DNA of 64,000 bases from Sycon ciliatum. Its lineage: Eukaryota; Porifera; Calcarea; Leucosolenida; Sycettidae. Location of the stretch: contig NC_088649.1 in assembly GCF_964019385.1 (NCBI RefSeq), positions 22,288,435 through 22,352,434 on the forward strand. Direction: 5' to 3'. Below the pieces are notes generated by a model. The model had not been told where the DNA came from. It was given only the letters and a program-made list of their open reading frames with translations, and did no database searches. The position numbers and the translations under genes were made by a program. Numbering within the stretch: position 1 is the stretch's first letter; every line of letters begins with the position of its first letter. Below are positions 8,704 through 37,156 of this stretch, piece by piece.

Positions 8704-9803
8704 GGACGATCATCCATCCTCTGAGGGGAGGATTATTCCTTTCCGCTCCCATTAGGAATGCATTCAACTTTGTTTTCTGTTTTCTACGAAGAGAGGAAAG
8801 AAACATGCTGTCCTAACGAATTCCAAAAAAACAGAAAGAGAATAGGTCGAAGCGAATTGAGTCGAACTTTGTTCCTCCACCCGTTGTCACCATCATGCTA
8901 CCGCTGATGTTGGCGATGCTTAGTGTGGATGTCGAGACTGCTGATTCTGGAGTTATGCCTGCTGTTGAGTGGGACGGATCGGTGTGCTGGGCGATACGGA
9001 ATAATCTGCAAGCGGGTACGATGAGAAAGATCTGCAACTGGAAAGATATCCGGCAGAGCATTTTCTTTTTTACAATAGAATCTATACTGTCAGAAATACA
9101 TGCCTGCAAATCAGTCAGGGCGGACAGCCCAACGCTTGTGAAATTTTACTGCACTGCTGTGGGGATGTTTGCGTGGAATTTGGACAGGCATAGGGGGCCC
9201 TATCACGGGCAACCATATTTTACCTTCGCAACTTGTCGTGAGCGTGTAAGCTATCACGCAGAACGTCTCATTTCGCTGTGCTCGTTGAAGTGTCCCATCT
9301 CTACTGCACAAATGGAGCTGGTTGCGCTATTTCACGGAATCGGAATGTGAAGTGTCGTCACCATCTTGAACTAAAAGTGGTCCTTTTTCTACTTGCGCAA
9401 CCGCCATCTGCTGATGGCACTGATCGCTACCCCTTCAAAGCGTATCCACTGGACGCAACGAGTGCAGAACGACTCTGGCGATATTGAGAGCAGGAGTTGA
9501 GAGGAGAAAGCCATACCATATACTCGCCTGGAAAGTGGAACATCGATTCTACATGCGTCGACACTCTGGACGATTTGGGTTCGAGGGTCGCTACATCTGT
9601 GGTTTTGGATATGCTGCAACACTGGCTTTTTCGTTTTCAAAGGCTACGTCAGCGAAGTTGGGCAAGGAAGCGATTTAAAATTCTAGCGGCTACTTTCTTA
9701 AATGAGTTGACCAGCCGTGGTGGAGATGCTCTCTGCAGCATTATGTGTATCCGATCTTCGAACGTTTTAAGCGGACTGCTCTCCTGAGGTCACAAGCAGC
9801 TTT

Positions 9804-13673: not shown

Positions 13674-14861
13674 ATGCTGCCCGAACGACTTCCAAAGGAA
13701 CAGAAAGACAATGGATCGAGGCAACTTGAGTCGAACCTTTTTCTTCCACCCGTTGTCACCATAATGCTAGCACTGATGTTGGTGATGCTTAGTGTGAATG
13801 TTGATACTGCTGATTATGGAGTTATGCCTGCTGTTGAGTGGGACGCATCGGTGTGCTGGGCGAAACGTACCAGTGCGCAAGCGGGTACGATGAGAAAGAT
13901 CTGCAACTGGAATGATATACGGCAGAGCATGTTCTGCATTACAATGGAAGCTATACAGTCAGAAAAACACGCTTGCAAGTCAGTCTGGGCGGACAGCCCA
14001 TTGCTCGTGAAATTTTACTGCTTCGCTGTGGGGATGTTCACGTTGAATTTCGAGAAGCATAGGGGGCACTATTTACGGTCAACACATTTTAGCTTCGCAA
14101 CTTGTCATGAGCGTGCAAGCTATCACGCGGAACGTCTCATTTCGCAGTGCTCGATGAAGTCCAAAGTGTCCCATGTTTACTGTACGAATGGCGCCGGTTG
14201 CAGTATTTCACGTCATGTTAATTGTCGTCACCATCTTGCACGAAAAGTGGTCCTTTTCCTACTTGCGCATCCGCTATCTGCTGACGGCACTGATCGCTAC
14301 CCCTTCAGAGCGCATCCAATGGACGCAACGAGTGCAGAACGACTCTGGGGATGTTGGGAACAGGAGTTGAGAGAAGAAAGCCATACCATATACACGCCTG
14401 GAAAGTGGGACATCCATTCTGCATGCGTCGACACTCTGAAAGATTTAGGTTCGAGGGTCGCTACATATGTGGTTTTGGACGTGCTGCAACACTCGCTTTT
14501 TCGTCTTCAAAGGGTACGTCAGCGAAGTTGGGTAAGGAAGCGATTTAAAATTCTAGCGGCTACTTTCTTACATGAGTTGACCAGCCGTGGTGGAGATGCT
14601 CTCCTCCAGCATTACGTGTATCCGGTCTTCGAACGTTTTAAGCGGACTGCTCTCCTGAGGTCACAAGCAGCTTCTAGAAATGTAATCGTCTCTTGCAGTG
14701 GACTACGTGGAAAACGCACACAGGTCTACAGCTCCGTTTTGCGCCTGCTGAGACTAGTTATTGTGCACGAAATTACCACCGTGAAATACAAACTGCCGCG
14801 TTTCGCGTTTGTGATTCTCTCCACTCTTAACACTTTCCTGCCGTGCGCCGTGAGTAGTTAG
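13674..14861 (+). CDS. Cysteine-patterned secreted/membrane family protein, copy 3, C-terminus supplied by a transposon
   Basis: An uninterrupted single exon of 395 codons, close to the intact copy at 51438. The N-terminal 25 residues are polar and conserved between copies. A hydrophobic signal or anchor segment follows (about residues 27-45), with an internal Met at 31 that would leave a classical signal peptide. Ten or more Cys keep their positions; the GCWEQEL, PGKWDI and SCSGLRGK blocks are present. The C-terminal 35 residues are hydrophobic. The Polinton-like element inserted at codon 393, so the last codons and the TAG stop come from its terminus. I do not recognise the family; function unknown. 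Confidence 0.75.
   Translation: MLPERLPKEQKDNGSRQLESNLFLPPVVTIMLALMLVMLSVNVDTADYGVMPAVEWDASVCWAKRTSAQAGTMRKICNWNDIRQSMFCITMEAIQSEKHACKSVWADSPLLVKFYCFAVGMFTLNFEKHRGHYLRSTHFSFATCHERASYHAERLISQCSMKSKVSHVYCTNGAGCSISRHVNCRHHLARKVVLFLLAHPLSADGTDRYPFRAHPMDATSAERLWGCWEQELREESHTIYTPGKWDIHSACVDTLKDLGSRVATYVVLDVLQHSLFRLQRVRQRSWVRKRFKILAATFLHELTSRGGDALLQHYVYPVFERFKRTALLRSQAASRNVIVSCSGLRGKRTQVYSSVLRLLRLVIVHEITTVKYKLPRFAFVILSTLNTFLPCAVSS
14847..14852. other. Left 6-bp target-site duplication
   Basis: GCCGTG immediately before the terminal AGTAGTTAG. It repeats at 28168-28173. Confidence 0.85.
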
Positions 14862-14887
14862 TGCGGGGCAGGTTCTGGGCCACTTTT

Positions 14888-14976
14888 TGACCTTTGACCT
14901 TTGGGCCAAATAAGGCACACTGTGTCGGTCGTGCTGGGTCTGGCCCCGGGACCCCCCAGAGTTTGACCTTTGACCC
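14888..14976. promoter_or_regulatory. Two DR1-type nuclear-receptor-like sites near the left terminus
   Basis: TGACCTTTGACCT (14888-14900) is the exact reverse of the canonical DR1 AGGTCAAAGGTCA. TGACCTTTGACCC (14964-14976) is one base off. Both lie within 125 bp of the element end. Mirrored at 28044-28132. Binding is not demonstrated. Confidence 0.4.
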
Positions 14977-15024
14977 CTGGCATGCCATAAATGTCATTCT
15001 TAAGGTTCTTTTCGCCAAAGATGG

Positions 15025-15051
15025 CGAACGTGCACTTGTGCACGTTCGGTG
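15025..15051. repeat. Short hairpin cluster near element terminus
   Basis: CGAACGTGCAC and GTGCACGTTCG form an 11-bp stem with a 2-nt loop about 170 bp from the end. Smaller palindromes (GCACATCGAAGATGTGC near 15098, GCACATCGTAGATGTGC near 15300) follow. All recur mirrored at 27720-27995. They could be replication or regulatory signals; no evidence beyond the sequence. Confidence 0.5.
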
Positions 15052-15302
15052 CATTCGCACCGGGGAGTAGTAAAATACGTACTATCCCCTGATTTGCACA
15101 TCGAAGATGTGCATTGCATGCAGTGAATGACATATTGCGCATGTGTGCATACGCACGCGAAGCGTGTGACCTTCAGTGGTCCTATGCGTGTGGGAAAGAC
15201 GCAGTGCAACGCAAGGTGTACTAGTACACGTGTCAATATACTAATCCCTTCGTAGATTTGCAGCAAACAAGTTCACGTTCCGTGCATTCGTTTTATTCGC
15301 AC

Positions 15303-15979
15303 ATCGTAGATGTGCACTGATTGACAAGTTGCCCATACAGAGCATGCCTAATCGGCTTTTCGATCGGTTTCAGAGAATGTTCAAATTCGGCCATATTATG
15401 AGCCCCAAGATCAGAATTCGACTCAACGTAGTACTTGAAGTCACTGTTCCCATTACGTCATGTACATTTACACACAGTCTGTTGAAGCACTGAAACATCG
15501 ATTTTCGGCGAATTCAACAAGCGAAATGTGAAAATTCGGCGAAAAGATGGGTGATTTCTTCAAAACCACTTTTTTCTGCGAATTTTTCGGCCGGCCGAAT
15601 TGGGAAATGCCTACTATCCATGCAGGTGCATTAGATGCATATTTCTATTTTGATCGGGATACAGTAAGAATCAACCGGCTACGCCGGTATCATACAGTAT
15701 CATGCATCAAAACAATTATTGAAGGGGTGTCACAGTGAAGCAGTGTTGCTACGCACCGCAAATCCCCTCTGCACTGCACCGAATCTATACTGGAGAATCC
15801 AGAGTGACCAGCAAAGAGTCACAACCCGCACGTATCCAGTCACACTAAGGCATATCCACCATTCCCCACATATTCACTGTAACAAAACACAATACTGTTT
15901 ACTATAATGCACTTTTATTTAAATAGACTTGGATGAGTCTGTAGAAGAGAACACAATGCACGCACACGCATGCATGCGC

Positions 15980-15982
<3 letters not shown>
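15303..15982. other. No convincing gene; AT-rich terminal part of left arm
   Basis: A short frame at 15547-15738 is open further in the right-arm mirror (27120-27473, 117 codons, minus) because of the 9-bp arm difference near 15685. Its codon content does not resemble a gene, so I leave it unassigned. Mirror region: about 27038-27717. Confidence 0.4.

Positions 15983-16020
<38 letters not shown>
15983..16020. repeat. (CA)n microsatellite in left arm
   Basis: CA dinucleotide run, mirrored as (TG)n at 27009-27046. It separates the terminal region from the gene-bearing part of the arm. Confidence 0.9.
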
Positions 16021-16021
<1 letters not shown>

Positions 16022-16462
16022 CTAGGTTATAGTGCTATACACGTATCTAGGGTTTAGGAAGCACGAGAATATGTCGAAGCACCCACGCATACCCCTTCAT
16101 GCAGTGTACTTCAGTAGCCCAACACATTACGACTGCTCAGGACCATCACAAAACACATTACGACCGCTCAGGACCATCACAAAACACCACACACTGTTAC
16201 TACACTGCATACACAGTTACTACACTACGCCTGTTACAAGTACTTACAAATAATTTTGAAAACAAATGGCACATCCCGAAGACGGCAGCTAGCTCCAGAC
16301 CTTCATACATACGTCATCATCATCTGTAAAACCAAGCATGAGCGCACACAAACACTATTAGTGTCACGAATACGGAAGCAGGGTAAGACAAGAGGATACG
16401 AAACAAGTAAGTATCGCTATAACGAGGAGGATAAGTATACATGTAGACAGAGCAGTGCTTAC

Positions 16463-16805
16463 TTACAGGGTCCGGATACGCTCCATGGCATCCCGGTAGT
16501 CGGACTGCAACAGCAGCCCGACTTGCCGGCCCTCCCAGTAACGGGCCCGATGGGTCGCACCCGCCAGGTGCGCGGCCACGGCCTGGCCTCCCACCAGCCT
16601 TTCTCCACTGTAAAAACGAAAGAAACCGCAGAAAGCACAGTGTCATAGAGCTCTTTTGTTGGGGGAGAGAGCTAGGAGCACTGCACACTTACCATTTGTC
16701 GCAATATATTATAAGAAAGAGGCGGCGCTTGACGCACCGCCTCAGGTGTTGAAACAGGGGTACTACCCCTGTAAGGCGAACGCCACAGTGACACGTGAAC
16801 GTCAT
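16463..16805 (-). CDS. Spliced small zinc-finger protein (left-arm copy)
   Basis: Two exons on the minus strand: ATG at 16805 to 16693, then 16607 to the stop at 16463. The intron starts GTAAGT and ends in a pyrimidine tract plus CAG. Splicing joins an open frame of about 86 codons; neither exon is long alone. Two Cys/His clusters share a C-G-x-R-L-x-G pattern: one in exon 1 and one across the junction with CDKC followed by His residues 12 and 18 positions later, like a C2H2 finger. The stop overlaps another donor-like CTGTAAGT. A DNA- or protein-binding regulator is plausible. It is divergent from the RING gene at 17081. Confidence 0.6.
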
Positions 16806-17080
16806 TTCTACAGACTGTTTTCAGGATAATGATACTGAAGTGAAGGTGTGAACCGCAAAGCAAGACCTTTACCTTCTTCCTGTCAAATTCGCTCCCCAGC
16901 TGCATACCGACATCATCCGCTAAAACCCAATCATACCAAGTAACGCAAAGGTCATCAGTTGACCTTTTGGACTTTTCAACTCTTATCCAAAACCACCAAG
17001 AGGAAAAAACCAGGATGAAGAAGACGTCAGTTGTAGAAGCGTTTGTGGAGGAGTTGTTACATTATTCTCAGTAAATAGAT
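16806..17080. promoter_or_regulatory. Divergent promoter region between zinc-finger and RING genes
   Basis: This 275-bp gap separates two genes reading outward. It holds AGGTCA-TCAGT-TGACCT (16949-16965), an inverted pair of nuclear-receptor-like half sites, and a CCAAT motif near 16927. No TATA box is evident. Mirrored at 25949-26223. Confidence 0.4.
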
Positions 17081-18133
17081 ATGGCTGATACATTCGGTGT
17101 AGACTTGGACGACCGGTCGTGGTCTCTCACCACGGGTCCTTTACTAATAGAAAGGCGGACGCCAATAAGAACAGTTGTGGAGTTGGCAGATCAAAACGCG
17201 CAGCAAGAAATTTGGCACGTCGATGGTAGACTCCATCGGGAGGACGGACCAGCTCTTGTTGATAGTAGGGGAGTGTCCGCCTGGTGCTATGGAGGTCGCC
17301 TTCATCGCGTTAATGAACCGGCTTGGATAGGACGGGGTAGCATAGAGTACTACCTCAACGGCGCCCGTCATAGAGCCGGCGGTCCTGCAGTCAGTTATTA
17401 TGACGCCACATGCGGTATTCTACGGTGGTATCACCACGGAAGACTCCACAGGTATGATGGCCCTGCAGTGGAAACATTTTCAGACCTTGGTGAAGACTCT
17501 GAGGGGTTCTACCGACACCGCGAAGAGTGGTATTGGAATGGCGTCAGACAAAGGATCGGCGACGGCCCTGCTCTGACGGAGAGATTTGATGGCGCCTATT
17601 TGCTGGAAGCCTGGTATGTCCAAGGGCGTCTACACAGAGTAGACGGACCAGCCAGGATCACTCGGAGTGATGATGGTATCACCATCCAGTGGTATTATCA
17701 CGACCGGCTCCACAGGGAGAATTCGCCAGCCGTGATACGCAGGGAAGGTAACAACCGTGTACGGGAGTGGTACCGATACAACCTTCGGCATAGGGAAGAT
17801 GGGCCTGCTTTCATCTCTCAGGAGGAGGAGGGTATCTATCAGTGGTACCTCAACGGGGTGTATTACGGTGACCACCATCAAGACCAGGCAATACACCCCA
17901 TGGAGCTGCAGCACATCAATGTAGTGCCTACTAAGGTAGACTCGTCAGCAATAAGTCATGAGCCCATTTGTGTGATTTGTCAGGATACCCTGAACCGTCC
18001 TCTATCCAAGTTGGAGTGTGGTCATGAATTTCACTTCCACTGTATCAAGGAGTGGATCAGTTCTGCCTCCAGCCCAACTTGCCCAACCTGCCGCTACTCC
18101 ATGACTGCTGAGGACTTGGTTGAGTTCTTGTAG
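17081..18133 (+). CDS. RLHREDGPA-repeat protein with C-terminal RING-H2 finger (left-arm copy)
   Basis: An intronless 350-codon frame. Residues 45-262 hold about nine degenerate copies of a unit with the pattern W-Y-x-x-G-R-L-H-R-x-D-G-P-A, a repeat type known from giant viruses, phages and some bacteria. Residues 297-337 form a RING-H2 finger: C297, C300, C313, H315, H318, C321, C334, C337, with Trp325 in the usual place. The combination suggests a virus-like E3 ubiquitin ligase whose repeats bind a substrate. It reads away from the zinc-finger gene. Confidence 0.85.
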   Translation: MADTFGVDLDDRSWSLTTGPLLIERRTPIRTVVELADQNAQQEIWHVDGRLHREDGPALVDSRGVSAWCYGGRLHRVNEPAWIGRGSIEYYLNGARHRAGGPAVSYYDATCGILRWYHHGRLHRYDGPAVETFSDLGEDSEGFYRHREEWYWNGVRQRIGDGPALTERFDGAYLLEAWYVQGRLHRVDGPARITRSDDGITIQWYYHDRLHRENSPAVIRREGNNRVREWYRYNLRHREDGPAFISQEEEGIYQWYLNGVYYGDHHQDQAIHPMELQHINVVPTKVDSSAISHEPICVICQDTLNRPLSKLECGHEFHFHCIKEWISSASSPTCPTCRYSMTAEDLVEFL

Positions 18134-18219
18134 TAATACATGACACCGCTGCGTGTAGGCGACTACGAATGACCAGTCATGTGCTACAGATGGACACGGA
18201 CACGCCACCCTAAGTAGCC

Positions 18220-18465
18220 ATGAGCGGCTATTTGGACAAGGACAACAAAGCACCTCGTGGGTGGCCAAGGTTGACACTAGCTACAAGTCTGGTCGCTCAG
18301 TTGAATAAGCTGGGTGTGCCCATGAAGACCATGCAGAGGACAAGACAGACTGGAAGAAACTGTGCAGCTCGACACTCGAGGACAAATCAGTATCAGCAGC
18401 TACTACACCTTGCTGATGATGCTCACAAGACAGAAGTGGGGAAAAAACTGAATTTCTTTATTTAG
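18220..18465 (+). CDS. Hypothetical 81-residue protein (left-arm copy)
   Basis: ATG at 18220, 81 codons, basic and without hydrophobic segments, beginning MSGYLDKDNKAPRGW. It begins 87 bp after the RING gene on the same strand. It could instead be the 3' UTR of that gene. No family recognised. Confidence 0.3.
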   Translation: MSGYLDKDNKAPRGWPRLTLATSLVAQLNKLGVPMKTMQRTRQTGRNCAARHSRTNQYQQLLHLADDAHKTEVGKKLNFFI

Positions 18466-18562
18466 TGCTCAACTACGCGAAATGTGTTATTATTATTATT
18501 ATACATGTTCAACTGTAATCAGTCTGGCTGACTGCCATTCTCTACCACACATTACCGGACAC

Positions 18563-19650
18563 TGTTGTGGTTGTCGTCGTTATCGTCGTCGTTGCTGATG
18601 TTGTAGTCGGTTGTTGTCGTCGTTATCGTCGTCGTTGTTGATGTTGTTATTGGTTGTTGCTGTCGGTTGTTGCCGGTTGTTGTCGTCGTTTGTTGTTGGT
18701 TGTTGTTGGTTGTTGTTGATGTTGTTGTCGGTTGTTGTCGTCGTTATCGTCGTCGTTGTTGATGTTGTTATTGGTTGTTGTTGGTTGTTGTTGTGTGTTG
18801 TTGTCGGTTGTTGTTGCCTGTTGGATGTTGTTGTCGGTTGTTGCTGGTTATTGTTGGTTGTTGTTGGTTGTTGTTGTTGTCGGTTGTTGTCGGTTGTTGT
18901 CGGTTGTTGGGTGTTCTTGTTGGTTGGTGTTGGTTGTTGTTGGTTGTTGTTGGTTGTTGTCGGTTGTTGTCCGTTGTTGTCGGCTGTTGCTAGTTGTTGT
19001 TGGCTGTTGTTGTTGACTGTTGTTGGTTGTTGTTGGATGTTGTTGTCGGTTGTTGTCGGTTGCTAGTTGTTGGTTGTAGTTGGTTGTTGTTGGTTGGTGT
19101 TGGTTGTTGTCGGTTGTTTTCGGCTGTTGTCGGTTGTTGTTGTTTATTGTTGGCTGTTGTTGGTTGTTGTTGGGTGTTGTTTGGTATTGTTGTCGGTTGT
19201 TGCCGGTTGTCGTTTGCTGTTGTTGGTTGTTGTTGCCGATTGCTGTCGGTTGTTGGGTGTTGTTGTCGCTTGTTGGGTGTTGTTGTTGGTTGGTGTTGGT
19301 TGTTGTTGGTTGTTGTTGGTTGTTGTCCGTTGTTGTCCGTTGTTGTTGGCTGTTGTTGGTTGTTGTTGGCTGTTGTTGGTTGTTGTTGGTTGTTGTTGTC
19401 GGCCGTTGTCGGTTGTTGGTTGTTGTTGTTGGTTGTTGTTGGCTGTAGTTGGTTGTTATCGGTTGTTGTTGGTTGTTGGATGTTGTTGTCAGTTGTTGTC
19501 GGTTGTTGTTGGTTGTTGTTGGTTGTTGTTGGCTGTTGTTGGTTGTTGTTGGCTGTTGTTGGCTGTTGTTGGTTGTTGTCGGTTGTTGTCGGTTGTTGGG
19601 TGTTGTTGTTGGTTGTTGTTGGTTGTTGTCGGTTGTTGTCGGTTATTGTG
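18563..19650. repeat. GTTGTTG-type minisatellite (left arm)
   Basis: About 1.1 kb of imperfect units such as GGTTGTTGTTGGTTGTTGTC, nearly all G and T on the plus strand. It opens several long Leu/Val/Cys frames at once in different phases, a simple-repeat artefact. Confidence 0.95.
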
Positions 19651-19899
19651 TTTTAATCATTATTTTGTTCATTATCCAGGAGGATGTTGCTATGATCCAA
19701 TACTATTTTTTCGCATATATGAGACAAGTTTGTGTAGCGTTAGTGTGACGTGGAGTATGCTGATTGGATGTGAGGTGGTGAGAGTATGCTGATTGACCGA
19801 TAGCAATTAGTGGAAGGGATAAAGTAATGCACTGCTTGTGCAGCGTAACCAAACACATGGTCTGTGGGAAACACCTTAGTAAAATAAATAAAATAATAA

Positions 19900-20433
19900 T
19901 AACATGAATTGCCACCGGCACTTGAGAGACTCGAGCCTCGCCGCCTTGTTCAAATCGGACTTGGTAGCTTCGTACTGGAACTTAATCTTCTTCTTTTTGA
20001 GGTATGACCGTACAAAACGCGCTTGGATTTTTTCATTTATTTTATTTATTTATTTTTATTTATTTATTTTTTTCATTGCAACATTTTTAGCAGATGTCCA
20101 CTCGTGAAACAAAGGTGAATCTGGAACGAATAAATGGGCCATGTCAAAGGCATGACGAGTCTCGAAGTCTTCACATTCACGATGGAACCTTGTCATGATT
20201 GACGCATTCCTTGATGGTGCGCACATGAAATCACCCTGGCTCATCTTTTCCAACACCATTCTTTTCACATCCTGCAACCCATACCCTACTAGTATCAGTG
20301 GGGACGCTAGAATCAGAAGAGGCAAGACAGCACTCTTCCGTGGATGTATTACTCGACACAACACCACCCATACTTGTTTTCTAGAAGTTTTGACTATAAT
20401 GATATATTGCAGCAGGAAGTAGTATACAGTCAA
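19900..20433 (-). pseudogene. Small membrane protein broken by an AAAT microsatellite (left-arm copy)
   Basis: The minus-strand frame 20433-20056 has no clear ATG at its 5' end. It encodes a hydrophobic segment (about 20 residues around LPLLILASPLILVGYG) and then a soluble stretch. At 20033-20070 a run of AAAT units introduces stops. The coding-like sequence resumes in register after the run (about 20030 down to 19905) with a Lys-rich stretch. A microsatellite expansion inside a once longer gene is the simplest reading. Confidence 0.45.
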
Positions 20434-20493
20434 ATAGGATAGGATAAGAATGAATGCTCAACTGTCTGATAAAGAATGCAGTTCATTAAAGAC

Positions 20494-20790
20494 TTATTGG
20501 AAGGTCTCTACCAGCTGATCGTCATGTTGGACGGCAACACTGCATAATGATATGAAGCTCTCAGTTAGCTGTTTCAGTTCCGTGGTAGAAAGTGTCATGT
20601 GTGCGTCCAAAGAACGATGAAAACATCTGGGGTCCACGTTGATGCAGACGATTGGAGCAACAGCAAGACGTACCTTCAACGCTTGCTCGTCAATGTCGAG
20701 GGAGACTGCCCCGGGGTAGATGAAAACATCTTGTTCCACATCCAGTTCGAACCAGCTGGTCGGGACTAGCTTGCTTTCACCGTTGATGTA
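20494..20790 (-). pseudogene. Truncated 3' part of the loop-spanning gene
   Basis: Inverted duplicate of the last 99 codons of the gene at 21765-22535. At 20790 the homology stops exactly where the (GAA)n tract begins, so this copy has no 5' part and reads into a run of Phe codons. Confidence 0.85.
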
Positions 20791-21519
20791 GAAGAAGAAG
20801 AAGAAGAAGAAGAAGAAGAAGAAGAAGAGCAATACGGGGAGGAAAAACAGTGTCAACATCTTGATCATGTTTTACATGAAGGAAGATACGTGTGTTCTTC
20901 GTGTGGACTTGTCATGGCGGTGATTTACTTCCCTGAAGATGATGTGCATAGGAGATGTAGTTTGATGAAGAAGCCTTACGCGGTACATGAGCGGTTAAGC
21001 GGTGTGGATCGTCATCTTTTGCATTTTCTTTCGAAAACTGAACTCTTATCCGATCAGCTTTGCGTACACACTCTTCGGGAGCAGATACTTGCGATGAAAA
21101 AATCCTGTTTGTACAAGAGTATAAACTATGCTATAGCATTATCCTGCATAGTATACGATACGAATGTGGATGTACTACGTAAACTGCGTTCCTACTTACC
21201 TCGTAGCAATGTATCATGGTTGAGGTTCAGTCGAATCATGAAACCTCTTCCTCAGCATTTTCCACTCCTATATGTACTGCGTCTCATGGAGTCGACCAGG
21301 ATGGTGTCTTCTTCTCAACTGTCCACGTTGCGTACGAATTTGCTGATTTTATCTCCATCTGATACATCTCTTATGATATCATTGATTGATGCCTATTGTT
21401 GGGAAACCTATTCACTTGATCACGTGATTCAGAACTTGCACACGTTTGACTCTGATCTTATTTCCATACTGTATCAGTTCACTAAAGTGGCGGTATCATG
21501 TAAGGAATCTTTAAGATGA
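20770..21519 (+). CDS. Zinc-ribbon, TFIIB-like protein, N-terminus lost at the breakpoint
   Basis: Open frame from a TAG at 20767 to the stop at 21517-21519, with no ATG before the conserved part. After the poly-Glu run comes a zinc-ribbon pattern: Cys at 20851 and His two residues later, then CSSCGLV with Cys at 20893 and 20902. About 200 mostly helical residues follow. The ribbon plus helical body resembles TFIIB-like transcription factors, which large DNA viruses also encode, but the similarity is only at motif level. The start was probably removed when the left arm was joined here. Confidence 0.5.
   Translation, partial: LAFTVDVEEEEEEEEEEEEEQYGEEKQCQHLDHVLHEGRYVCSSCGLVMAVIYFPEDDVHRRCSLMKKPYAVHERLSGVDRHLLHFLSKTELLSDQLCVHTLREQILAMKKSCLYKSINYAIALSCIVYDTNVDVLRKLRSYLPRSNVSWLRFSRIMKPLPQHFPLLYVLRLMESTRMVSSSQLSTLRTNLLILSPSDTSLMISLIDAYCWETYSLDHVIQNLHTFDSDLISILYQFTKVAVSCKESLR
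20791..20826. repeat. (GAA)n tract at the palindrome breakpoint
   Basis: Twelve GAA triplets lie exactly at the join between left arm and loop. On the plus strand they read as poly-Glu in the frame of the zinc-ribbon ORF that follows. Confidence 0.95.
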
Positions 21520-21533
21520 GATATGATTTTGGT

Positions 21534-21660
21534 GGGCATGCCGCTGATTGGACAAAATGCTTTTGGTGGGTTTGATGCTGGCTGGTCAAATGTGTTTTTG
21601 GTGGGCTCAATGCTGAGTGGTCAAATGTTTTTGGCGGGCTTGATGGTGATTGGTTGACCT
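21534..21660 (+). promoter_or_regulatory. Four tandem units with CCAAT-like motifs
   Basis: Four imperfect units of 30-37 bp (TTTTGGTGGG..TGATGCTGA.TGGTCAAATG) lie just upstream of a TATA box. Two units contain ATTGG, the reverse of CCAAT. A GCTGATTGG motif also occurs near 19757. Probably an upstream promoter array for the gene at 21765. Confidence 0.5.
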
Positions 21661-21707
21661 AGCTGACACATATTTTATCACTTCAACCCGCCTCCGTCTC
21701 TGCCTTG

Positions 21708-21715
21708 TATAAATA
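21708..21715 (+). promoter_or_regulatory. TATA box
   Basis: TATAAATA followed by CGGG, 57 nt before the first ATG (21765) and directly after the tandem CCAAT-like array. Confidence 0.65.
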
Positions 21716-21764
21716 CGGGTGGTTGTCCTGTAGTCGAGTCATTCGTTCATCGAATGCAGTGCTG

Positions 21765-22535
21765 ATGAGTTGTTCTCCCTTCGCTTCCTGGAAGATGGAT
21801 AACCTATACGAGCGGCGGGTGAGGAAGAATTCCGCTCTTCCTGCTGACCCTCCTCAAGTTGTGCTCTCTTCGAAGGCAGTACCGGCTAAGCGTCGCTATG
21901 TGTCACCTGCTCCTACCAAGCTCCACAAAGAGATTGTGGTAGATGGGTTTCAGGAGGACATGCAACTGTCCTACAAGTCATCAGGTAGATCCTTCTACAA
22001 GCCTGGTTATAAGATGTACTTCCCTTCAGGAGCTCTACCAGCCTGTGGTAGTACGGCAACAGCTCGCAAAGATGCTCAAGGACAGGTTTACATCGAACTG
22101 AATGAGTCCACTGAGTTCATCATTACGAACTTGATCAAGACTTGTCCATCGCTCCGTGACACTCTCCGAAGAGGACGTGTGGAGAAGATCAAGACCAACT
22201 TCTACCCGTCATGTTCGTCCTACGGTCAATGTCGGGTGTACATCAACGGTGAAAGCAAGCTAGTCCCGACCAGCTGGTTCGAACTGGATGTGGAACAAGA
22301 TGTTTTCATCTACCCCGGGGCAGTCTCCCTCGACATTGACGAGCAAGCGTTGAAGGTACGTCTTGCTGTTGCTCCAATCGTCTGCATCAACGTGGACCCC
22401 AGATGTTTTCATCGTTCTTTGGACGCACACATGACACTTTCTACCACGGAACTGAAACAGCTAACTGAGAGCTTCATATCATTATGCAGTGTTGCCGTCC
22501 AACATGACGATCAGCTGGTAGAGACCTTCCAATAA
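21765..22535 (+). CDS. Unknown protein spanning the loop/right-arm junction
   Basis: ATG at 21765 gives 256 residues; a second ATG at 21795 gives 246. There is no signal peptide or membrane segment. The middle and C-terminal parts look beta-rich with alternating hydrophobics (VFIYPGAVSLDI, LKVRLAVAPIVCINVD). The frame crosses 22238/22239 without disturbance, so this junction is native. I do not recognise the family; a structural or nucleic-acid-binding viral-type protein is possible but unproven. The TATA box and tandem array upstream support expression. Confidence 0.6.
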   Translation: MSCSPFASWKMDNLYERRVRKNSALPADPPQVVLSSKAVPAKRRYVSPAPTKLHKEIVVDGFQEDMQLSYKSSGRSFYKPGYKMYFPSGALPACGSTATARKDAQGQVYIELNESTEFIITNLIKTCPSLRDTLRRGRVEKIKTNFYPSCSSYGQCRVYINGESKLVPTSWFELDVEQDVFIYPGAVSLDIDEQALKVRLAVAPIVCINVDPRCFHRSLDAHMTLSTTELKQLTESFISLCSVAVQHDDQLVETFQ

Positions 22536-22595
22536 GTCTTTAATGAACTGCATTCTTTATCAGACAGTTGATCATTCATTCTTATCCTATCCTAT

Positions 22596-23129
22596 TTGAC
22601 TGTATACTACTTCCTGCTGCAATATATCATTATAGTCAAAACTTCTAGAAAACAAGTATGGGTGGTGTTGTGTCGAGTAATACATCCACGGAAGAGTGCT
22701 GTCTTGCCTCTTCTGATTCTAGCGTCCCCACTGATACTAGTAGGGTATGGGTTGCAGGATGTGAAAAGAATGGTGTTGGAAAAGATGAGCCAGGGTGATT
22801 TCATGTGCGCACCATCAAGGAATGCGTCAATCATGACAAGGTTCCATCGTGAATGTGAAGACTTCGAGACTCGTCATGCCTTTGACATGGCCCATTTATT
22901 CGTTCCAGATTCACCTTTGTTTCACGAGTGGACATCTGCTAAAAATGTTGCAATGAAAAAAATAAATAAATAAAAATAAATAAATAAAATAAATGAAAAA
23001 ATCCAAGCGCGTTTTGTACGGTCATACCTCAAAAAGAAGAAGATTAAGTTCCAGTACGAAGCTACCAAGTCCGATTTGAACAAGGCGGCGAGGCTCGAGT
23101 CTCTCAAGTGCCGGTGGCAATTCATGTTA
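22596..23129 (+). pseudogene. Small membrane protein broken by an AAAT microsatellite (right-arm copy)
   Basis: Mirror of the left-arm copy. The open frame ends in the AAAT run near 22960-23000. An ATG in another phase at 22659 opens only 46 codons. Confidence 0.45.
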
Positions 23130-23378
23130 TTATTATTTTATTTATTTTACTAAGGTGTTTCCCACAGACCATGTGTTTGGTTACGCTGCACAAGCAGTGC
23201 ATTACTTTATCCCTTCCACTAATTGCTATCGGTCAATCAGCATACTCTCACCACCTCACATCCAATCAGCATACTCCACGTCACACTAACGCTACACAAA
23301 CTTGTCTCATATATGCGAAAAAATAGTATTGGATCATAGCAACATCCTCCTGGATAATGAACAAAATAATGATTAAAA

Positions 23379-24466
23379 CACAATAACCGACAACAACCGA
23401 CAACAACCAACAACAACCAACAACAACACCCAACAACCGACAACAACCGACAACAACCAACAACAGCCAACAACAGCCAACAACAACCAACAACAGCCAA
23501 CAACAACCAACAACAACCAACAACAACCGACAACAACTGACAACAACATCCAACAACCAACAACAACCGATAACAACCAACTACAGCCAACAACAACCAA
23601 CAACAACAACCAACAACCGACAACGGCCGACAACAACAACCAACAACAACCAACAACAGCCAACAACAACCAACAACAGCCAACAACAACGGACAACAAC
23701 GGACAACAACCAACAACAACCAACAACAACCAACACCAACCAACAACAACACCCAACAAGCGACAACAACACCCAACAACCGACAGCAATCGGCAACAAC
23801 AACCAACAACAGCAAACGACAACCGGCAACAACCGACAACAATACCAAACAACACCCAACAACAACCAACAACAGCCAACAATAAACAACAACAACCGAC
23901 AACAGCCGAAAACAACCGACAACAACCAACACCAACCAACAACAACCAACTACAACCAACAACTAGCAACCGACAACAACCGACAACAACATCCAACAAC
24001 AACCAACAACAGTCAACAACAACAGCCAACAACAACTAGCAACAGCCGACAACAACGGACAACAACCGACAACAACCAACAACAACCAACAACAACCAAC
24101 ACCAACCAACAAGAACACCCAACAACCGACAACAACCGACAACAACCGACAACAACAACAACCAACAACAACCAACAATAACCAGCAACAACCGACAACA
24201 ACATCCAACAGGCAACAACAACCGACAACAACACACAACAACAACCAACAACAACCAATAACAACATCAACAACGACGACGATAACGACGACAACAACCG
24301 ACAACAACATCAACAACAACCAACAACAACCAACAACAAACGACGACAACAACCGGCAACAACCGACAGCAACAACCAATAACAACATCAACAACGACGA
24401 CGATAACGACGACAACAACCGACTACAACATCAGCAACGACGACGATAACGACGACAACCACAACA
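23379..24466. repeat. CAACAAC-type minisatellite (right arm)
   Basis: Mirror of 18563-19650, A/C-rich on the plus strand. The arms keep the same repeat layout and produce the same set of spurious reading frames, which is unusual for a tandem array and again points to recent origin. Confidence 0.95.
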
Positions 24467-24563
24467 GTGTCCGGTAATGTGTGGTAGAGAATGGCAGTCA
24501 GCCAGACTGATTACAGTTGAACATGTATAATAATAATAATAACACATTTCGCGTAGTTGAGCA

Positions 24564-24809
24564 CTAAATAAAGAAATTCAGTTTTTTCCCCACTTCTGTC
24601 TTGTGAGCATCATCAGCAAGGTGTAGTAGCTGCTGATACTGATTTGTCCTCGAGTGTCGAGCTGCACAGTTTCTTCCAGTCTGTCTTGTCCTCTGCATGG
24701 TCTTCATGGGCACACCCAGCTTATTCAACTGAGCGACCAGACTTGTAGCTAGTGTCAACCTTGGCCACCCACGAGGTGCTTTGTTGTCCTTGTCCAAATA
24801 GCCGCTCAT
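24564..24809 (-). CDS. Hypothetical 81-residue protein (right-arm copy)
   Basis: Mirror of 18220-18465 with the same translation. An AATAAA on the opposite strand overlaps its end. Confidence 0.3.
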   Translation of the reverse strand: MSGYLDKDNKAPRGWPRLTLATSLVAQLNKLGVPMKTMQRTRQTGRNCAARHSRTNQYQQLLHLADDAHKTEVGKKLNFFI

Positions 24810-24895
24810 GGCTACTTAGGGTGGCGTGTCCGTGTCCATCTGTAGCACATGACTGGTCATTCGTAGTCGCCTACACGCAGCGGTGTCATGTATTA

Positions 24896-25948
24896 CTACA
24901 AGAACTCAACCAAGTCCTCAGCAGTCATGGAGTAGCGGCAGGTTGGGCAAGTTGGGCTGGAGGCAGAACTGATCCACTCCTTGATACAGTGGAAGTGAAA
25001 TTCATGACCACACTCCAACTTGGATAGAGGACGGTTCAGGGTATCCTGACAAATCACACAAATGGGCTCATGACTTATTGCTGACGAGTCTACCTTAGTA
25101 GGCACTACATTGATGTGCTGCAGCTCCATGGGGTGTATTGCCTGGTCTTGATGGTGGTCACCGTAATACACCCCGTTGAGGTACCACTGATAGATACCCT
25201 CCTCCTCCTGAGAGATGAAAGCAGGCCCATCTTCCCTATGCCGAAGGTTGTATCGGTACCACTCCCGTACACGGTTGTTACCTTCCCTGCGTATCACGGC
25301 TGGCGAATTCTCCCTGTGGAGCCGGTCGTGATAATACCACTGGATGGTGATACCATCATCACTCCGAGTGATCCTGGCTGGTCCGTCTACTCTGTGTAGA
25401 CGCCCTTGGACATACCAGGCTTCCAGCAAATAGGCGCCATCAAATCTCTCCGTCAGAGCAGGGCCGTCGCCGATCCTTTGTCTGACGCCATTCCAATACC
25501 ACTCTTCGCGGTGTCGGTAGAACCCCTCAGAGTCTTCACCAAGGTCTGAAAATGTTTCCACTGCAGGGCCATCATACCTGTGGAGTCTTCCGTGGTGATA
25601 CCACCGTAGAATACCGCATGTGGCGTCATAATAACTGACTGCAGGACCGCCGGCTCTATGACGGGCGCCGTTGAGGTAGTACTCTATGCTACCCCGTCCT
25701 ATCCAAGCCGGTTCATTAACGCGATGAAGGCGACCTCCATAGCACCAGGCGGACACTCCCCTACTATCAACAAGAGCTGGTCCGTCCTCCCGATGGAGTC
25801 TACCATCGACGTGCCAAATTTCTTGCTGCGCGTTTTGATCTGCCAACTCCACAACTGTTCTTATTGGCGTCCGCCTTTCTATTAGTAAAGGACCCGTGGT
25901 GAGAGACCACGACCGGTCGTCCAAGTCTACACCGAATGTATCAGCCAT
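24896..25948 (-). CDS. RLHREDGPA-repeat protein with C-terminal RING-H2 finger (right-arm copy)
   Basis: Identical translation to the left-arm copy at 17081-18133: 350 codons, ATG at 25948, stop at 24896, same repeats and RING residues. Complete identity of both copies in a 1,053-bp gene argues for very recent formation of the palindrome, gene conversion between arms, or duplicate assembly of one sequence. Confidence 0.85.
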   Translation of the reverse strand: MADTFGVDLDDRSWSLTTGPLLIERRTPIRTVVELADQNAQQEIWHVDGRLHREDGPALVDSRGVSAWCYGGRLHRVNEPAWIGRGSIEYYLNGARHRAGGPAVSYYDATCGILRWYHHGRLHRYDGPAVETFSDLGEDSEGFYRHREEWYWNGVRQRIGDGPALTERFDGAYLLEAWYVQGRLHRVDGPARITRSDDGITIQWYYHDRLHRENSPAVIRREGNNRVREWYRYNLRHREDGPAFISQEEEGIYQWYLNGVYYGDHHQDQAIHPMELQHINVVPTKVDSSAISHEPICVICQDTLNRPLSKLECGHEFHFHCIKEWISSASSPTCPTCRYSMTAEDLVEFL

Positions 25949-26223
25949 ATCTATTTACTGAGAATAATGTAACAACTCCTCCACAAACGCTTCTACAACT
26001 GACGTCTTCTTCATCCTGGTTTTTTCCTCTTGGTGGTTTTGGATAAGAGTTGAAAAGTCCAAAAGGTCAACTGATGACCTTTGCGTTACTTGGTATGATT
26101 GGGTTTTAGCGGATGATGTCGGTATGCAGCTGGGGAGCGAATTTGACAGGAAGAAGGTAAAGGTCTTGCTTTGCGGTTCACACCTTCACTTCAGTATCAT
26201 TATCCTGAAAACAGTCTGTAGAA

Positions 26224-26566
26224 ATGACGTTCACGTGTCACTGTGGCGTCCGCCTTACAGGGGTAGTACCCCTGTTTCAACACCTGAGGCGGTGCGTCAA
26301 GCGCCGCCTCTTTCTTATAATATATTGCGACAAATGGTAAGTGTGCAGTGCTCCTAGCTCTCTCCCCCAACAAAAGAGCTCTATGACACTGTGCTTTCTG
26401 CGGTTTCTTTCGTTTTTACAGTGGAGAAAGGCTGGTGGGAGGCCAGGCCGTGGCCGCGCACCTGGCGGGTGCGACCCATCGGGCCCGTTACTGGGAGGGC
26501 CGGCAAGTCGGGCTGCTGTTGCAGTCCGACTACCGGGATGCCATGGAGCGTATCCGGACCCTGTAA
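26224..26566 (+). CDS. Spliced small zinc-finger protein (right-arm copy)
   Basis: Mirror of 16463-16805: exon 1 at 26224-26336, donor GTAAGTGTG, acceptor TTTTTACAG, exon 2 at 26422 to the TAA at 26564-26566. The visible substitution in exon 1 relative to the left copy is synonymous. Two paired Cys/His clusters are present as described for the left copy. Confidence 0.6.
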
Positions 26567-27007
26567 GTAAGCACTGCTCTGTCTACATGTATACTTATCC
26601 TCCTCGTTATAGCGATACTTACTTGTTTCGTATCCTCTTGTCTTACCCTGCTTCCGTATTCGTGACACTAATAGTGTTTGTGTGCGCTCATGCTTGGTTT
26701 TACAGATGATGATGACGTATGTATGAAGGTCTGGAGCTAGCTGCCGTCTTCGGGATGTGCCATTTGTTTTCAAAATTATTTGTAAGTACTTGTAACAGGC
26801 GTAGTGTAGTAACTGTGTATGCAGTGTAGTAACAGTGTGTGGTGTTTTGTGATGGTCCTGAGCGGTCGTAATGTGTTTTGTGATGGTCCTGAGCAGTCGT
26901 AATGTGTTGGGCTACTGAAGTACACTGCATGAAGGGGTATGCGTGGGTGCTTCGACATATTCTCGTGCTTCCTAAACCCTAGATACGTGTATAGCACTAT
27001 AACCTAG

Positions 27008-27047
<40 letters not shown>

Positions 27048-28043
27048 GCGCATGCATGCGTGTGCGTGCATTGTGTTCTCTTCTACAGACTCATCCAAGT
27101 CTATTTAAATAAAAGTGCATTATAGTAAACAGTATTGTGTTTTGTTACAGTGAATATGTGGGGAATGGTGGATATGCCTTAGTGTGACTGGATACGTGCG
27201 GGTTGTGACTCTTTGCTGGTCACTCTGGATTCTCCAGTATAGATTCGGTGCAGTGCAGAGGGGATTTGCGGTGCGTAGCAACACTGCTTCACTGTGACAC
27301 CCCTTCAATAATTGTTTTGATGCATGATACTCCGGGCGTAGCCGGTTGATTCTTACTGTATCCCGATCAAAATAGAAATATGCATCTAATGCACCTGCAT
27401 GGATAGTAGGCATTTCCCAATTCGGCCGGCCGAAAAATTCGCAGAAAAAAGTGGTTTTGAAGAAATCACCCATCTTTTCGCCGAATTTTCACATTTCGCT
27501 TGTTGAATTCGCCGAAAATCGATGTTTCAGTGCTTCAACAGACTGTGTGTAAATGTACATGACGTAATGGGAACAGTGACTTCAAGTACTACGTTGAGTC
27601 GAATTCTGATCTTGGGGCTCATAATATGGCCGAATTTGAACATTCTCTGAAACCGATCGAAAAGCCGATTAGGCATGCTCTGTATGGGCAACTTGTCAAT
27701 CAGTGCACATCTACGATGTGCGAATAAAACGAATGCACGGAACGTGAACTTGTTTGCTGCAAATCTACGAAGGGATTAGTATATTGACACGTGTACTAGT
27801 ACACCTTGCGTTGCACTGCGTCTTTCCCACACGCATAGGACCACTGAAGGTCACACGCTTCGCGTGCGTATGCACACATGCGCAATATGTCATTCACTGC
27901 ATGCAATGCACATCTTCGATGTGCAAATCAGGGGATAGTACGTATTTTACTACTCCCCGGTGCGAATGCACCGAACGTGCACAAGTGCACGTTCGCCATC
28001 TTTGGCGAAAAGAACCTTAAGAATGACATTTATGGCATGCCAG

Positions 28044-28132
28044 GGGTCAAAGGTCAAACTCTGGGGGGTCCCGGGGCCAGACCCAGCACGACCGACACAG
28101 TGTGCCTTATTTGGCCCAAAGGTCAAAGGTCA
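28044..28132. promoter_or_regulatory. Mirrored DR1-type sites near the right terminus
   Basis: Inverted copies of the two sites at 14888-14976, now read as AGGTCAAAGGTCA-type repeats on the plus strand. Confidence 0.4.
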
Positions 28133-28167
28133 AAAAGTGGCCCAGAACCTGCCCCGCACTAACTACT

Positions 28168-28173
28168 GCCGTG
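28168..28173. other. Right 6-bp target-site duplication
   Basis: GCCGTG immediately after the inverted terminus, followed by CACAGGCTTTTGTGATCTCG, which continues the interrupted gene's 3' end as in the paralogue near 52610. Confidence 0.85.
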
Positions 28174-33138: not shown

Positions 33139-34134
33139 TCAGCGGGCAGAAGCCAAGGTTTTGTACTTCTGAAGTGGAACAATGTCATTACCAGATTCAT
33201 CCAACAAATAATGTTCAGGCTCCCAAGTGGCATCAGAGTAGCCTTGCCACTTGACTAGGTACTGAAGCTGATTCTGCCGGCGGCGGTGACTGAGAATGTT
33301 CTCCACCACATAGCGGGCATGACCATCAAGGTCCGTGATAGGCGGAGGCGTAGGCTGTCTCCTATTAGGAATAGCGTTCTTCTCGTAGGCACGGAGTGCC
33401 GACACATTAAATACCGGGTGACAGCGGCTGGTGTGAGGCAACTTGAGCTTGTAGGCATTCGGGCCGACCACATGGGTTATAGGAAAGGGGCCAAACCACT
33501 TGGGGCGTAATTTATGGGATGGTCGGTCCCGAGCTTCAGGAGTCAGGAGGAAATCCCGGTAGACCATTACCAAATCTCCCACCTTCAGCTTTCCCTCGAC
33601 CCTTGTCCGATCTGCATTGAAGGCCTGACGAGCTTGAGCTGCCACTAGCGCATCTTGTGAGATCTTGACCGCGTCTTGTCTTGCTTGCAACCAATCAGCT
33701 GAATCTCTGCCTCCCTGAATAGGGTTGAGGAAGTCGGGTGGCGCTCTGGGATTTAGACCGTAATTTAAGAAGAACGGTGTGTTTCCTGTAGATGATTGAG
33801 TAGCGCTGTTGATAGAAAACTCACAGAGAGGTAGGAGCATATCCCAGTTATCTTGTTTATGATTTACAAAAGCCCTCAGCACATCCTCTACTATTCTGTT
33901 TACTCGTTCAGTTAGGCCATCTGTCTGAGGGTGATTGGCAGTACTAAATGCTAGTTTCGTTCCTAAGCGATCAAACAATTCCTGAAAAAATGCTGCCGTA
34001 AATCTTGGATCACGATCACATACAATACTAGAACTCAAACCATGAAGTCGAAATACATGTTGAATATACAGATCAGCACTTCCTTTAGCGTCAATAGTAG
34101 AGGAAGTAGGTGCTAAATGTACACACTTTGTCAA
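33139..34134 (-). pseudogene. pol: Integrase C-terminal part with chromodomain (pol, second segment)
   Basis: 331 codons continuing the integrase begun near 37770. Catalytic-core motifs are visible: an Asp in CDRDPRF and the Glu in TDGLTERVNR. A GPFPITHVVG region follows. The chromodomain is at the C-terminus: RYVVENILSHR, then YLVKWQGYSDATWEPE. It is separated from the rest of pol by inserted sequence, so it is a broken gene. Confidence 0.9.
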
Positions 34135-34152
34135 GCGGTCTACAAATACATA

Positions 34153-34570
34153 TTATAGCAATAAAAACTGCTTTATGGCAGTTTTCTAAAAAAAGTTATT
34201 GTGTTCTAGTCCATGGACCCCGTCTAAAAAGTAAGAAATTAACGAAATGTGATAGCCGAAAATTAAAATTTCACACAAAACCTCACAATAATCACGACAC
34301 TTGAAGATCTTATAGTACGGCACTTGTTTATTCCGACACTTGTACTTGTACAAGTACATGGACTGCGCCAACATGCTTGCATGTGAAAGAGGACCACGAG
34401 GGGAAAAGGTCGTCTCGCATCCTGTGTGTGATTATTGTGAGGTTTTGTGCGAAATTTTAATTTTCGCCTATCCCATTTCGTTAATTTCTTACTTTTTAGA
34501 CGGGGTCCATGGACTAGAACACAATAACTTTTTTTAGAAAACTGCCATAAAGCAGTTTTTATTGCTATAA
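34153..34570. mobile_element. Foldback MITE
   Basis: Arms of about 145 bp (34153-34300 and 34424-34570) pair with few mismatches; ends are TTATAGCAATAAAAACTGC and its inverse. The loop of about 125 bp has no gene. Confidence 0.8.
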
Positions 34571-34631
34571 TTTTGTTTTGTTTTTTTGGCTCAAGGATAT
34601 TATTATTTACAGTAAGAAGGTGGTAAAACAG

Positions 34632-35220
34632 CGCAAAAAGAAAGAAAGAAAGAAAGAAGATAGCTAAAGTAAACAGCGAAAATTGCAATAATGACACAAA
34701 GGTGCAAATGCGAGAAAACTCAATAAGCGCGACATGTAGTGCGACAACAAGAGACAACCACTGGACATACATGTAACTAACGAGGTTTTGACGACCTACC
34801 TAACAGCCTAAGTGTGAATTTGATTTGTTTCTGTTTGCAAAGGTTGGGTTTCCTTGTGTGGATGTGTACAGCTTCCAAAACATTCAGCAATCTAGCACTG
34901 CGTACACGTGACACAATCGGATGATTGTTTTTCGATTGTGTCACGTGTACGCAGTGCTAGATTGCTGAATGTTTTGGAAGCTGTACACATCCACACAAGG
35001 AAACCCAACCTTTGCAAACAGAAACAAATCAAATTCACACTTAGGCTGTTAGGTAGGTCGTCAAAACCTCGTTAGTTACATGTATGTCCAGTGGTTGTCT
35101 CTTGTTGTCGCACTACATGTCGCGCTTATTGAGTTTTCTCGCATTTGCACCTTTGTGTCATTATTGCAATTTTCGCTGTTTACTTTAGCTATCTTCTTTC
35201 TTTCTTTCTTTCTTTTTGCG
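34632..35220. repeat. Perfect 288-bp-arm palindrome
   Basis: 34632-34919 is the exact reverse complement of 34933-35220 by my reading, with a 13-nt centre. The outer ends are (GAAA)n/(TTTC)n runs. Long perfect palindromes are usually unstable, so this is recent, maintained, or an assembly product. Confidence 0.9.
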
Positions 35221-35510
35221 ATATTATTATTATTATTATTTTATTTATTTTACTAGGGTGTTTCCCACAGACCTATGGTCTTCTTACGGGAGCCCCTATG
35301 TACTACATGTACGTGTATCATATCAAATTCAATACCGTATTATACGCATTGATGTGCAAGCCTTTTCTTGCGGAAAATGGAACTAGTCTTGCGTATGATG
35401 ACAGATGTACACTGTATTCAGGTTCTTCTGCCGGGGAATCATATGGGTAGTGCAGTGGCGGTGATAATAATAATAATAATAATAATATCTTTATTAGGAT
35501 GACCCGATAC
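35221..35510 (-). mobile_element. Two LINE 3' tails
   Basis: At 35221-35290 an (ATT)n run and TTTTACTAGGGTGTTTCCCAC match the inverted 3' end of the LINE at 2695-3115. At 35463-35510 (AAT)n followed by TCTTTATTAGGATGACCCG looks like another LINE tail in the same orientation. No coding part remains. Confidence 0.5.
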
Positions 35511-36436: not shown

Positions 36437-36767
36437 GGGAGGTTCTGCTCTACGTTTTGGGAACGCGACGCAAAGAATCACGCGAACTTTCTTCGCGTTC
36501 CCGTAACGTAAAGAAATGCTGTTCTGCTCTACGTTTCACCTAGAGAAGTCACGTGGAATGTGTACTGGGAATTTTCCCTTCCATATTTGGCAGTTTTCTG
36601 CATGCAGTTGATCGATACCCAGCAAATTTTCTCTGCGTGTGCCACAACGTAGAGAACCCCATCTCCGCGTAGAAATCTGGAGCCAAAACACGCGAAGCCG
36701 TAGACTCTAACCCAGACACCTGCTCTCTACGTGATTTCTCTACGTTTCACGTATAGCAGAACCTCCC
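36437..36767. mobile_element. TA-flanked MITE
   Basis: Ends GGGAGGTTCTGCTCTACGT and, inverted, GGGAGGTTCTGCTATACGT, each bordered by TA. 331 bp without a transposase. Internal CTCTACGT-type motifs recur. Confidence 0.7.
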
Positions 36768-37156
36768 TATTGGCTTGTTTCGTATGAAGCAAACAAGTCA
36801 CTGAATGCATGAACCTCTCCATAATGGAGATTTTCCCTGATATGCGAATTTATCTTGCATACTAGTCCTGGGCCAATGCGTCCTTGAACCTTCCCCTACA
36901 GATTGGGAACTGCCAACGATGCTATGCCACTGCAAAATTCAGATTCTACCCTATGATCGGGGCACGGAATGCCGGAAGCAATCATGACCAGTGCCTTACT
37001 TGTAACGTACCAATGTACAATGAACATGAGTATTTCGACAACACATCTAAGCCTCAGCAGCAACATACAATGTAAGCCTTACCGTCAAGAAGGTGAACTC
37101 GCGTTCTTCGCACACTGTTGGCAAGGGCAAAGAGATACGAATGGATCTAAATCCGA

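What the first reader, a model, noticed from the sequence alone, without database searches (positions are those of the whole stretch)
14847..28173. A Polinton-like element that is one 13-kb palindrome: a copy-back genome?
Seen: 6-bp target duplication, AG...CT ends, arms of 5.94 and 5.93 kb with very few differences, loop of 1.45 kb. The right loop junction lies inside an intact gene; the left junction truncates one gene (20494-20790) and removes the start of another (20770-21519) at a (GAA)n tract. So the left arm looks like an inverted copy of the right. Protein-primed linear DNA replication is known to produce such snap-back molecules in adenoviruses and phages. Inference: a defective copy-back Polinton replicated, integrated and is now fixed or segregating.
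Basis: partly seen in the sequence, partly recalled or inferred. Interest (0 to 1): 0.9.

Follow-up and report, generated by a model that had tools for sequence, protein, structure and literature searches.

The report
Palindromic defective Polinton-like element
A virus-like jumping element in a genome that looks like a sponge's has lost one of its ends and carries a mirror copy of the other instead, probably a copying accident of linear viral DNA that then inserted into a host gene as one piece.

Summary
Window 14853-28167 is a 13,315-bp element flanked by a perfect 6-bp target duplication (GCCGTG); a paralogous host gene 38 kb away in the window shows the empty site. The arms (5,938 and 5,929 bp) differ only by two substitutions and two small indel sites; the loop is 1,448 bp. 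Outside homologues orient the event. A 256-aa gene crosses the right loop junction intact. At the left junction the same gene begins abruptly at codon 159, and a TFIIB-like gene lacks its N-terminus exactly at a GAA tract, while a 98%-identical relative carries that N-terminus. So the left arm is a secondary inverted copy of the right. A near-identical protein points to the calcareous sponge Sycon ciliatum or a relative as host. Ends and duplication fit Polinton/Maverick criteria, but no polymerase, integrase or capsid gene was recognised, and no full-length parent was seen: the own-genome search did not complete. Best reading: a copy-back (or tail-to-tail joined) defective genome of a linear element that integrated as a palindrome; in-situ repair between terminal repeats is the main rival. 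No Polinton case appeared in the literature listings I searched.

The parts
14847..14852 (.). left copy of 6-bp target duplication GCCGTG
   Evidence: empty-site paralogue at 52517-52668
28168..28173 (.). right copy of target duplication GCCGTG
14853..20790 (.). left arm, 5938 bp, inferred secondary inverted copy of the right arm
   Evidence: at its inner edge the 256-aa gene begins abruptly at codon 159
22239..28167 (.). right arm, 5929 bp, inferred native
   Evidence: the intact gene 21765-22535 crosses its inner edge, and all 6 relatives read across that point
20791..22238 (.). loop between the arms, 1448 bp
20791..20828 (+). GAA tract (12 GAA units then GAG) at the left junction, coding the poly-E of the TFIIB-like protein
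   Evidence: P0007 has a poly-E at the same place preceded by an N-terminus
20770..21519 (+). TFIIB-like protein ORF (weak TFIIB zinc-ribbon match) without the N-terminus seen in relatives
   Evidence: P0007 98% identical with that N-terminus
21765..22535 (+). intact 256-aa protein of unknown fold
   Evidence: no Pfam match and no PDB match below E 1
20494..20868 (-). chimeric ORF: 3' part of the 256-aa gene fused to the reverse of the GAA tract
   Evidence: 0 of 4 database hits carry the fusion
17081..18133 (+). left-arm copy of a 350-aa protein with HREDGPA-type repeats and C-terminal RING-H2 finger
24896..25948 (-). right-arm copy of the same repeat/RING protein
18570..19649 (.). about 1 kb of TGTTGTTG-type degenerate repeats, left arm
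23380..24456 (.). same repeat tract (CAACAACCA), right arm
13674..14861 (+). host gene-family ORF cut near its 3' end by the insertion
   Evidence: uninterrupted paralogue 51435-52631

Best explanation
A linear Polinton-like genome was being copied from its right end. Synthesis stopped in or just before the GAA tract of the TFIIB-like gene. The new strand's 3' end then switched onto its own or a sister strand about 1.45 kb back, inside the 256-aa gene, and was extended back to the right terminus. Second-strand synthesis turned this snap-back into a 13.3-kb duplex with two right ends, so both termini stayed usable for replication and integration while the left part was lost. Helper enzymes replicated and integrated it, duplicating 6 bp of target. 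Shown here: the palindrome, target duplication, empty-site paralogue, secondary left arm and exact junction. Inferred: protein-primed replication, helper enzymes in trans, and formation before integration.
For: Arms run to the last base of the element and the loop is asymmetric. Both ends carry the same terminal sequence beside one perfect 6-bp duplication, and the joined flanks match an empty paralogue. The 256-aa gene is intact across the right junction, where 6 of 6 relatives also read through, and begins at codon 159 on the left. P0007, 98% identical, keeps 21 residues before its aligned stretch that are absent here. The left junction abuts the only GAA/TTC run of six or more units in the window. 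No polymerase, integrase, ATPase, protease or capsid family reached its curated cut-off in the 12 element translations scanned against Pfam, some of which are the two arm copies or overlapping frames of one ORF. Ends and TSD match the criteria used for vertebrate Mavericks, (AGT)2//(ACT)2 plus 6 bp (passage read in PMC8097293).
Against: No full-length parent was seen. No second copy of the junction was seen: 0 of 4 protein hits to the chimeric ORF carry it; this is a weak test, since not even the window's own chimeric ORF is in that list. By eye no clear microhomology stands at the junction, and the parent DNA there is unknown. The structure alone does not separate this from in-situ repair or end joining. 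A weak Phage_capsid match (E 0.28, 11 bits against a cut-off of 24.2) to 27120-27485 was taken as chance.
Confidence: 0.48

Rival explanations
1. In-situ conversion: a full-length element inserted first. A break at the GAA tract was then repaired by fold-back copying of the right arm outward, resolving within the terminal repeats, so the left part was replaced in place.
For: It predicts the same TSD, arms and loop, and GAA tracts are recalled as fragile. Arms are very similar, as a recent conversion would give.
Against: It needs fold-back, about 5.9 kb of copying and re-annealing at the far terminal repeat in one event. No trace of the lost N-terminus remains: P0007's first 26 residues have no significant match in the window (best E 0.23).
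Confidence: 0.2
2. Tail-to-tail end joining: two broken right-end fragments of extrachromosomal genomes, one broken at the GAA tract and one at 22239, were ligated, and the product integrated.
For: The breakpoints are unequal and by eye I saw no clear microhomology. The few arm differences could come from two parent molecules.
Against: Near-identity of the arms is more directly given by copying; two of the four differing places are a microsatellite unit and a small complex indel, which can arise later.
Confidence: 0.17
3. Assembly or library artefact: a fold-back molecule or assembler path duplicated one arm.
For: Fold-back chimaeras are a known library problem (recalled); no reads could be examined.
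Against: The two outer flanks jointly match an empty paralogue, whereas a fold-back read would run into the reverse of one flank. The arms differ at four places.
Confidence: 0.07
4. An established non-autonomous family with native long inverted arms, comparable to foldback-type elements.
For: Long-armed transposons exist (recalled); Polinton-like viruses can have long terminal inverted repeats (passages read in PMC4642659).
Against: The left junction cuts two genes whose longer relatives represent clusters of 31 and 32 member sequences, and no database protein seen carries the junction.
Confidence: 0.06

Closest known systems
Polinton/Maverick elements
   Same: 6-bp target duplication and AGTAGT...ACTACT ends, as in the criteria for vertebrate Mavericks quoted in PMC8097293
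   Different: No polymerase, integrase, ATPase, protease or capsid gene recognised; one end duplicated over 5.9 kb
Hairpin and palindromic deletion derivatives of yeast killer plasmid pGKL1 (recalled; no paper read)
   Same: Protein-primed linear DNA whose terminal part forms a snap-back and an inverted dimer
   Different: Those are free plasmids in laboratory yeast; this is integrated in an animal-like genome
Adenovirus incomplete-particle defective DNAs with inverted terminal duplications (recalled; in PMC5033970 only reference titles and passages on packaging from the left end were seen)
   Same: Duplicated terminus on linear genomes of protein-primed replicators
   Different: Not integrated; the left end is typical by recall
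Copy-back defective genomes of RNA viruses (search listing only)
   Same: Template switch onto the nascent strand giving complementary ends
   Different: RNA genomes, different polymerase
Foldback-type DNA transposons (recalled)
   Same: Very long inverted arms around a short loop
   Different: Different ends and target duplication (recalled); here the junction cuts two genes of the element

Membership tests
Polinton/Maverick | 6-bp target site duplication | tested here: met
Polinton/Maverick | AG...CT ends, (AGT)2//(ACT)2 subtype | tested here: met
   sequence; criterion in PMC8097293
Polinton/Maverick | protein-primed polymerase B and retroviral-type integrase in this copy | tested here: not met
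   none in 12 element translations scanned against Pfam; expected if the left part is lost, so I call it Polinton-like only
Polinton/Maverick | packaging ATPase, protease, jelly-roll capsid proteins | tested here: inconclusive
   no sequence match above cut-off (one Phage_capsid match at E 0.28); the fold of the 256-aa protein could not be predicted (10 tries)
Polinton/Maverick | full-length parent with the marker genes in the same genome | not testable with these tools
   The genome search unanswered in 22 attempts
Copy-back (snap-back) defective genome | terminus duplicated in inverse orientation to its last base | tested here: met
Copy-back (snap-back) defective genome | one native and one novel loop junction | tested here: met
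Copy-back (snap-back) defective genome | formed during replication, before integration | not tested
   needs allele or population data, or a second insertion with the same junction

The most novel reading that the evidence does not exclude
A fossilised copy-back defective interfering genome of an animal Polintovirus: a snap-back palindrome that kept two right-end origins, replicated and integrated with helper enzymes, and so records that Polintons replicate as protein-primed linear DNA and can spawn interfering derivatives carried in the germ line.
Probability: 0.35. Interest if true: 0.8.

Novelty: new variant of a known kind. Interest (0 to 1): 0.62.

Why it matters
Mavericks encode capsid-morphogenesis homologues, but viral particles had not been observed according to the start of the abstract of PMC8097293 (2021). 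A palindrome with two copies of one end, integrated with a clean target duplication, would be physical evidence for an extrachromosomal linear replication stage with strand switching, and for enzymes acting in trans. It also gives a sequence signature (arms reaching the terminus, one native and one novel junction) that can be searched in any genome with Polintons.

Tried and rejected
Relatives in IMG/VR: 76 and 235 pattern matches, 0 confirmed, for the TFIIB-like and the 256-aa family. GTDB genomes: 13 pattern matches, 0 confirmed, TFIIB-like family only. Those answers warn that records of the window's own genome may be left out. PDB by sequence or profile: nothing below E 0.6. PHROGs and NCBIfam, 5 proteins each: one weak PHROGs match of unknown function (E 0.041) and one rad18 match by the RING finger far below cut-off. 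The idea that P0014 and P0016, whose first aligned residue after the start is the junction residue, show other copies of the junction was set aside as unproven: that residue follows a GTG codon that a gene caller may use as start. A chance palindrome is excluded by arm length. Literature: no palindromic or copy-back Polinton was apparent in the titles and abstract starts listed for Polinton+palindrom (44 papers, 20 listed), Polinton+defective interfering (1 paper), at least 3 of Polinton, Maverick, defective, long terminal inverted (22 papers, 20 listed) and Polinton+terminal inverted repeat+sponge (6 papers). Searches for the precedents gave little: 1 paper; 6; 82, 15 listed; over 45,000, 12 listed; 4. 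Passages only were seen of PMC8097293, PMC6431247, PMC6526912, PMC4642659 and PMC5033970; no paper was read whole.

Full report
What is there. The window holds a 13,315-bp insertion, 14853-28167, bounded by GCCGTG on both sides. It begins AGTAGTTAGTGCGGGGC and ends with the reverse complement. The arms are 5,938 and 5,929 bp and the loop is 1,448 bp. BLAST gives 99.78% identity, 4 mismatches and 2 gap openings. A global alignment resolves this as four differing places: two substitutions, one complex indel of 1 and 8 bp, and one AC dinucleotide unit. The assembly therefore holds two distinct arm sequences.

The target. The insertion cuts ORF 13674-14861, one of a local gene family. The left flank matches 51386-52616 at 91.6% over 1,231 bp and the right flank resumes at 52611. 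Joining the flanks with one copy of the duplication gives a sequence that aligns to 52517-52668 without a break at the insertion point; the alignment covers 100 bp on the left and 51 bp on the right. Further right the similarity is patchy (82-89% pieces). This is a natural empty site in the same window and confirms a 6-bp duplication.

Which arm is native. The 256-aa gene 21765-22535 crosses the right junction at codon 159. P0001 matches it at 95% over all 256 residues and P0002 at 88.4% over 250 residues; all 6 relatives, partial ones included, read across that point. In the left arm the same gene starts abruptly at that codon (position 20790). On the other side of the left junction lies the TFIIB-like ORF. 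P0007 is 97.5% identical over 242 residues from its residue 22 on and has 21 further residues before the poly-E that are missing here. More distant relatives P0009, P0010 and P0011 also begin MDS (P0011 after a short extension). Of the 7 relatives, these 4 have a full N-terminal region; P0008, P0012 and P0013 are short or rearranged there. So the right junction is ancestral and the left one is new.

The switch point. The left arm ends at 20790 and the GAA run starts at 20791; it is the only GAA/TTC run of six or more units in the 64 kb. The parent's DNA at this place is unknown, so homology at the switch cannot be measured; by eye none is evident between the tract and the bases beside codon 158 in the right arm.

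Host. P0003, a EukProt entry named scpid42763, is 98% identical over 173 residues; the prefix 'scpid' is used for Sycon ciliatum in PMC6526912 (passages read). The window is probably from that calcareous sponge or a close relative; a mobile-element gene is not proof of the host. The two loop families stand for clusters of 32 (P0001, 3 contigs listed) and 31 (P0007, 1 contig listed) member sequences. Whether these are copies within one genome or the same locus in several assemblies is not known.

Gene content. Of 12 translations from the element scanned against Pfam (they include arm duplicates and overlapping frames), one matched clearly: a RING-H2 finger (E 9e-10) at the end of a protein with HREDGPA-type repeats, present in both arms, which also has a sub-threshold DUF6745 match (E 0.0003). 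A TFIIB zinc ribbon matched weakly: 4 of 8 members of the TFIIB-like alignment, best E 0.0056; the window's own protein scores 14 bits against a cut-off of 29. Weak matches taken as chance: DUF7928 (E 0.085) to 22572-22970 and Phage_capsid (E 0.28) to 27120-27485. The low-complexity ORFs were not scanned. The 256-aa protein has no match in Pfam, PHROGs or NCBIfam and none below E 1 in PDB.

How it most likely arose. The arrangement (terminus duplicated to its last base, asymmetric loop, one old and one new junction, no recognised replication or integration genes, clean target duplication) is what a copy-back of a linear genome followed by integration would leave. Tail-to-tail joining of two broken genomes before integration gives the same product. 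Together these pre-integration routes get 0.65. In-situ repair through the terminal repeats gets 0.2, artefact 0.07, a native long-armed family 0.06. An artefact is unlikely because both flanks jointly match an empty paralogue and the arms differ at four places.

Membership. Ends and TSD meet the criteria quoted for vertebrate Mavericks, but marker genes are not found in this copy and no parent was seen, so 'Polinton-like' is as far as the evidence goes. Precedents in pGKL plasmids and adenovirus are recalled, not read.

Limits. The own-genome search did not answer in 22 attempts, so copy number, the parent and shared junctions are open.

Noticed in passing
4807-5580, 8817-9350, 13674-14861, 46718-47573, 51435-52631, 61076-62131: A family of related ORFs is repeated through the window, by DNA similarity (8731-9802, 46626-47585 and 51386-52616 match the target gene) or by shared GKWD motifs seen by eye. 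None of the 4 scanned has a Pfam match. Local gene-family expansion of unknown function.
   Followed up: partly
44460-44882 and 45774-46196: A second inverted repeat pair, 423-bp arms at 96.5% identity with a loop of about 0.9 kb, just beyond a reverse-transcriptase fragment.
   Followed up: no
34142-34300 and 34424-34581: Inverted repeat pair of about 160 bp at 95.6% identity next to the end of a chromodomain integrase ORF.
   Followed up: no
33139-41260: A Gypsy-type retroelement (protease, RT, RNase H, integrase zinc domain, chromodomain) whose integrase core appears, by eye, split by about 3.4 kb of other sequence; perhaps a nested insertion.
   Followed up: no
17081-18133 and 24896-25948: Protein with about eight HREDGPA-type repeats (counted by eye) fused to a RING-H2 finger inside a virus-like element; possibly a ubiquitin ligase that acts on a host target.
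   Followed up: partly
P0014 and P0016, each with a longest contig of 308,372 bp: Two truncated copies of the 256-aa gene start at the very place where the left junction cuts this element; probably a GTG start chosen by a gene caller, but worth checking for a recurrent break site.
   Followed up: partly
18570-19649 and 23380-24456: About 1 kb of degenerate repeats open in several frames in each arm (QPTTTNN-type and L/V/C-rich ORFs).
   Followed up: no
about 23127-23173 and 35230-35277: A 48-column match at 95.8% between the right arm and a place outside the element; not characterised.
   Followed up: no
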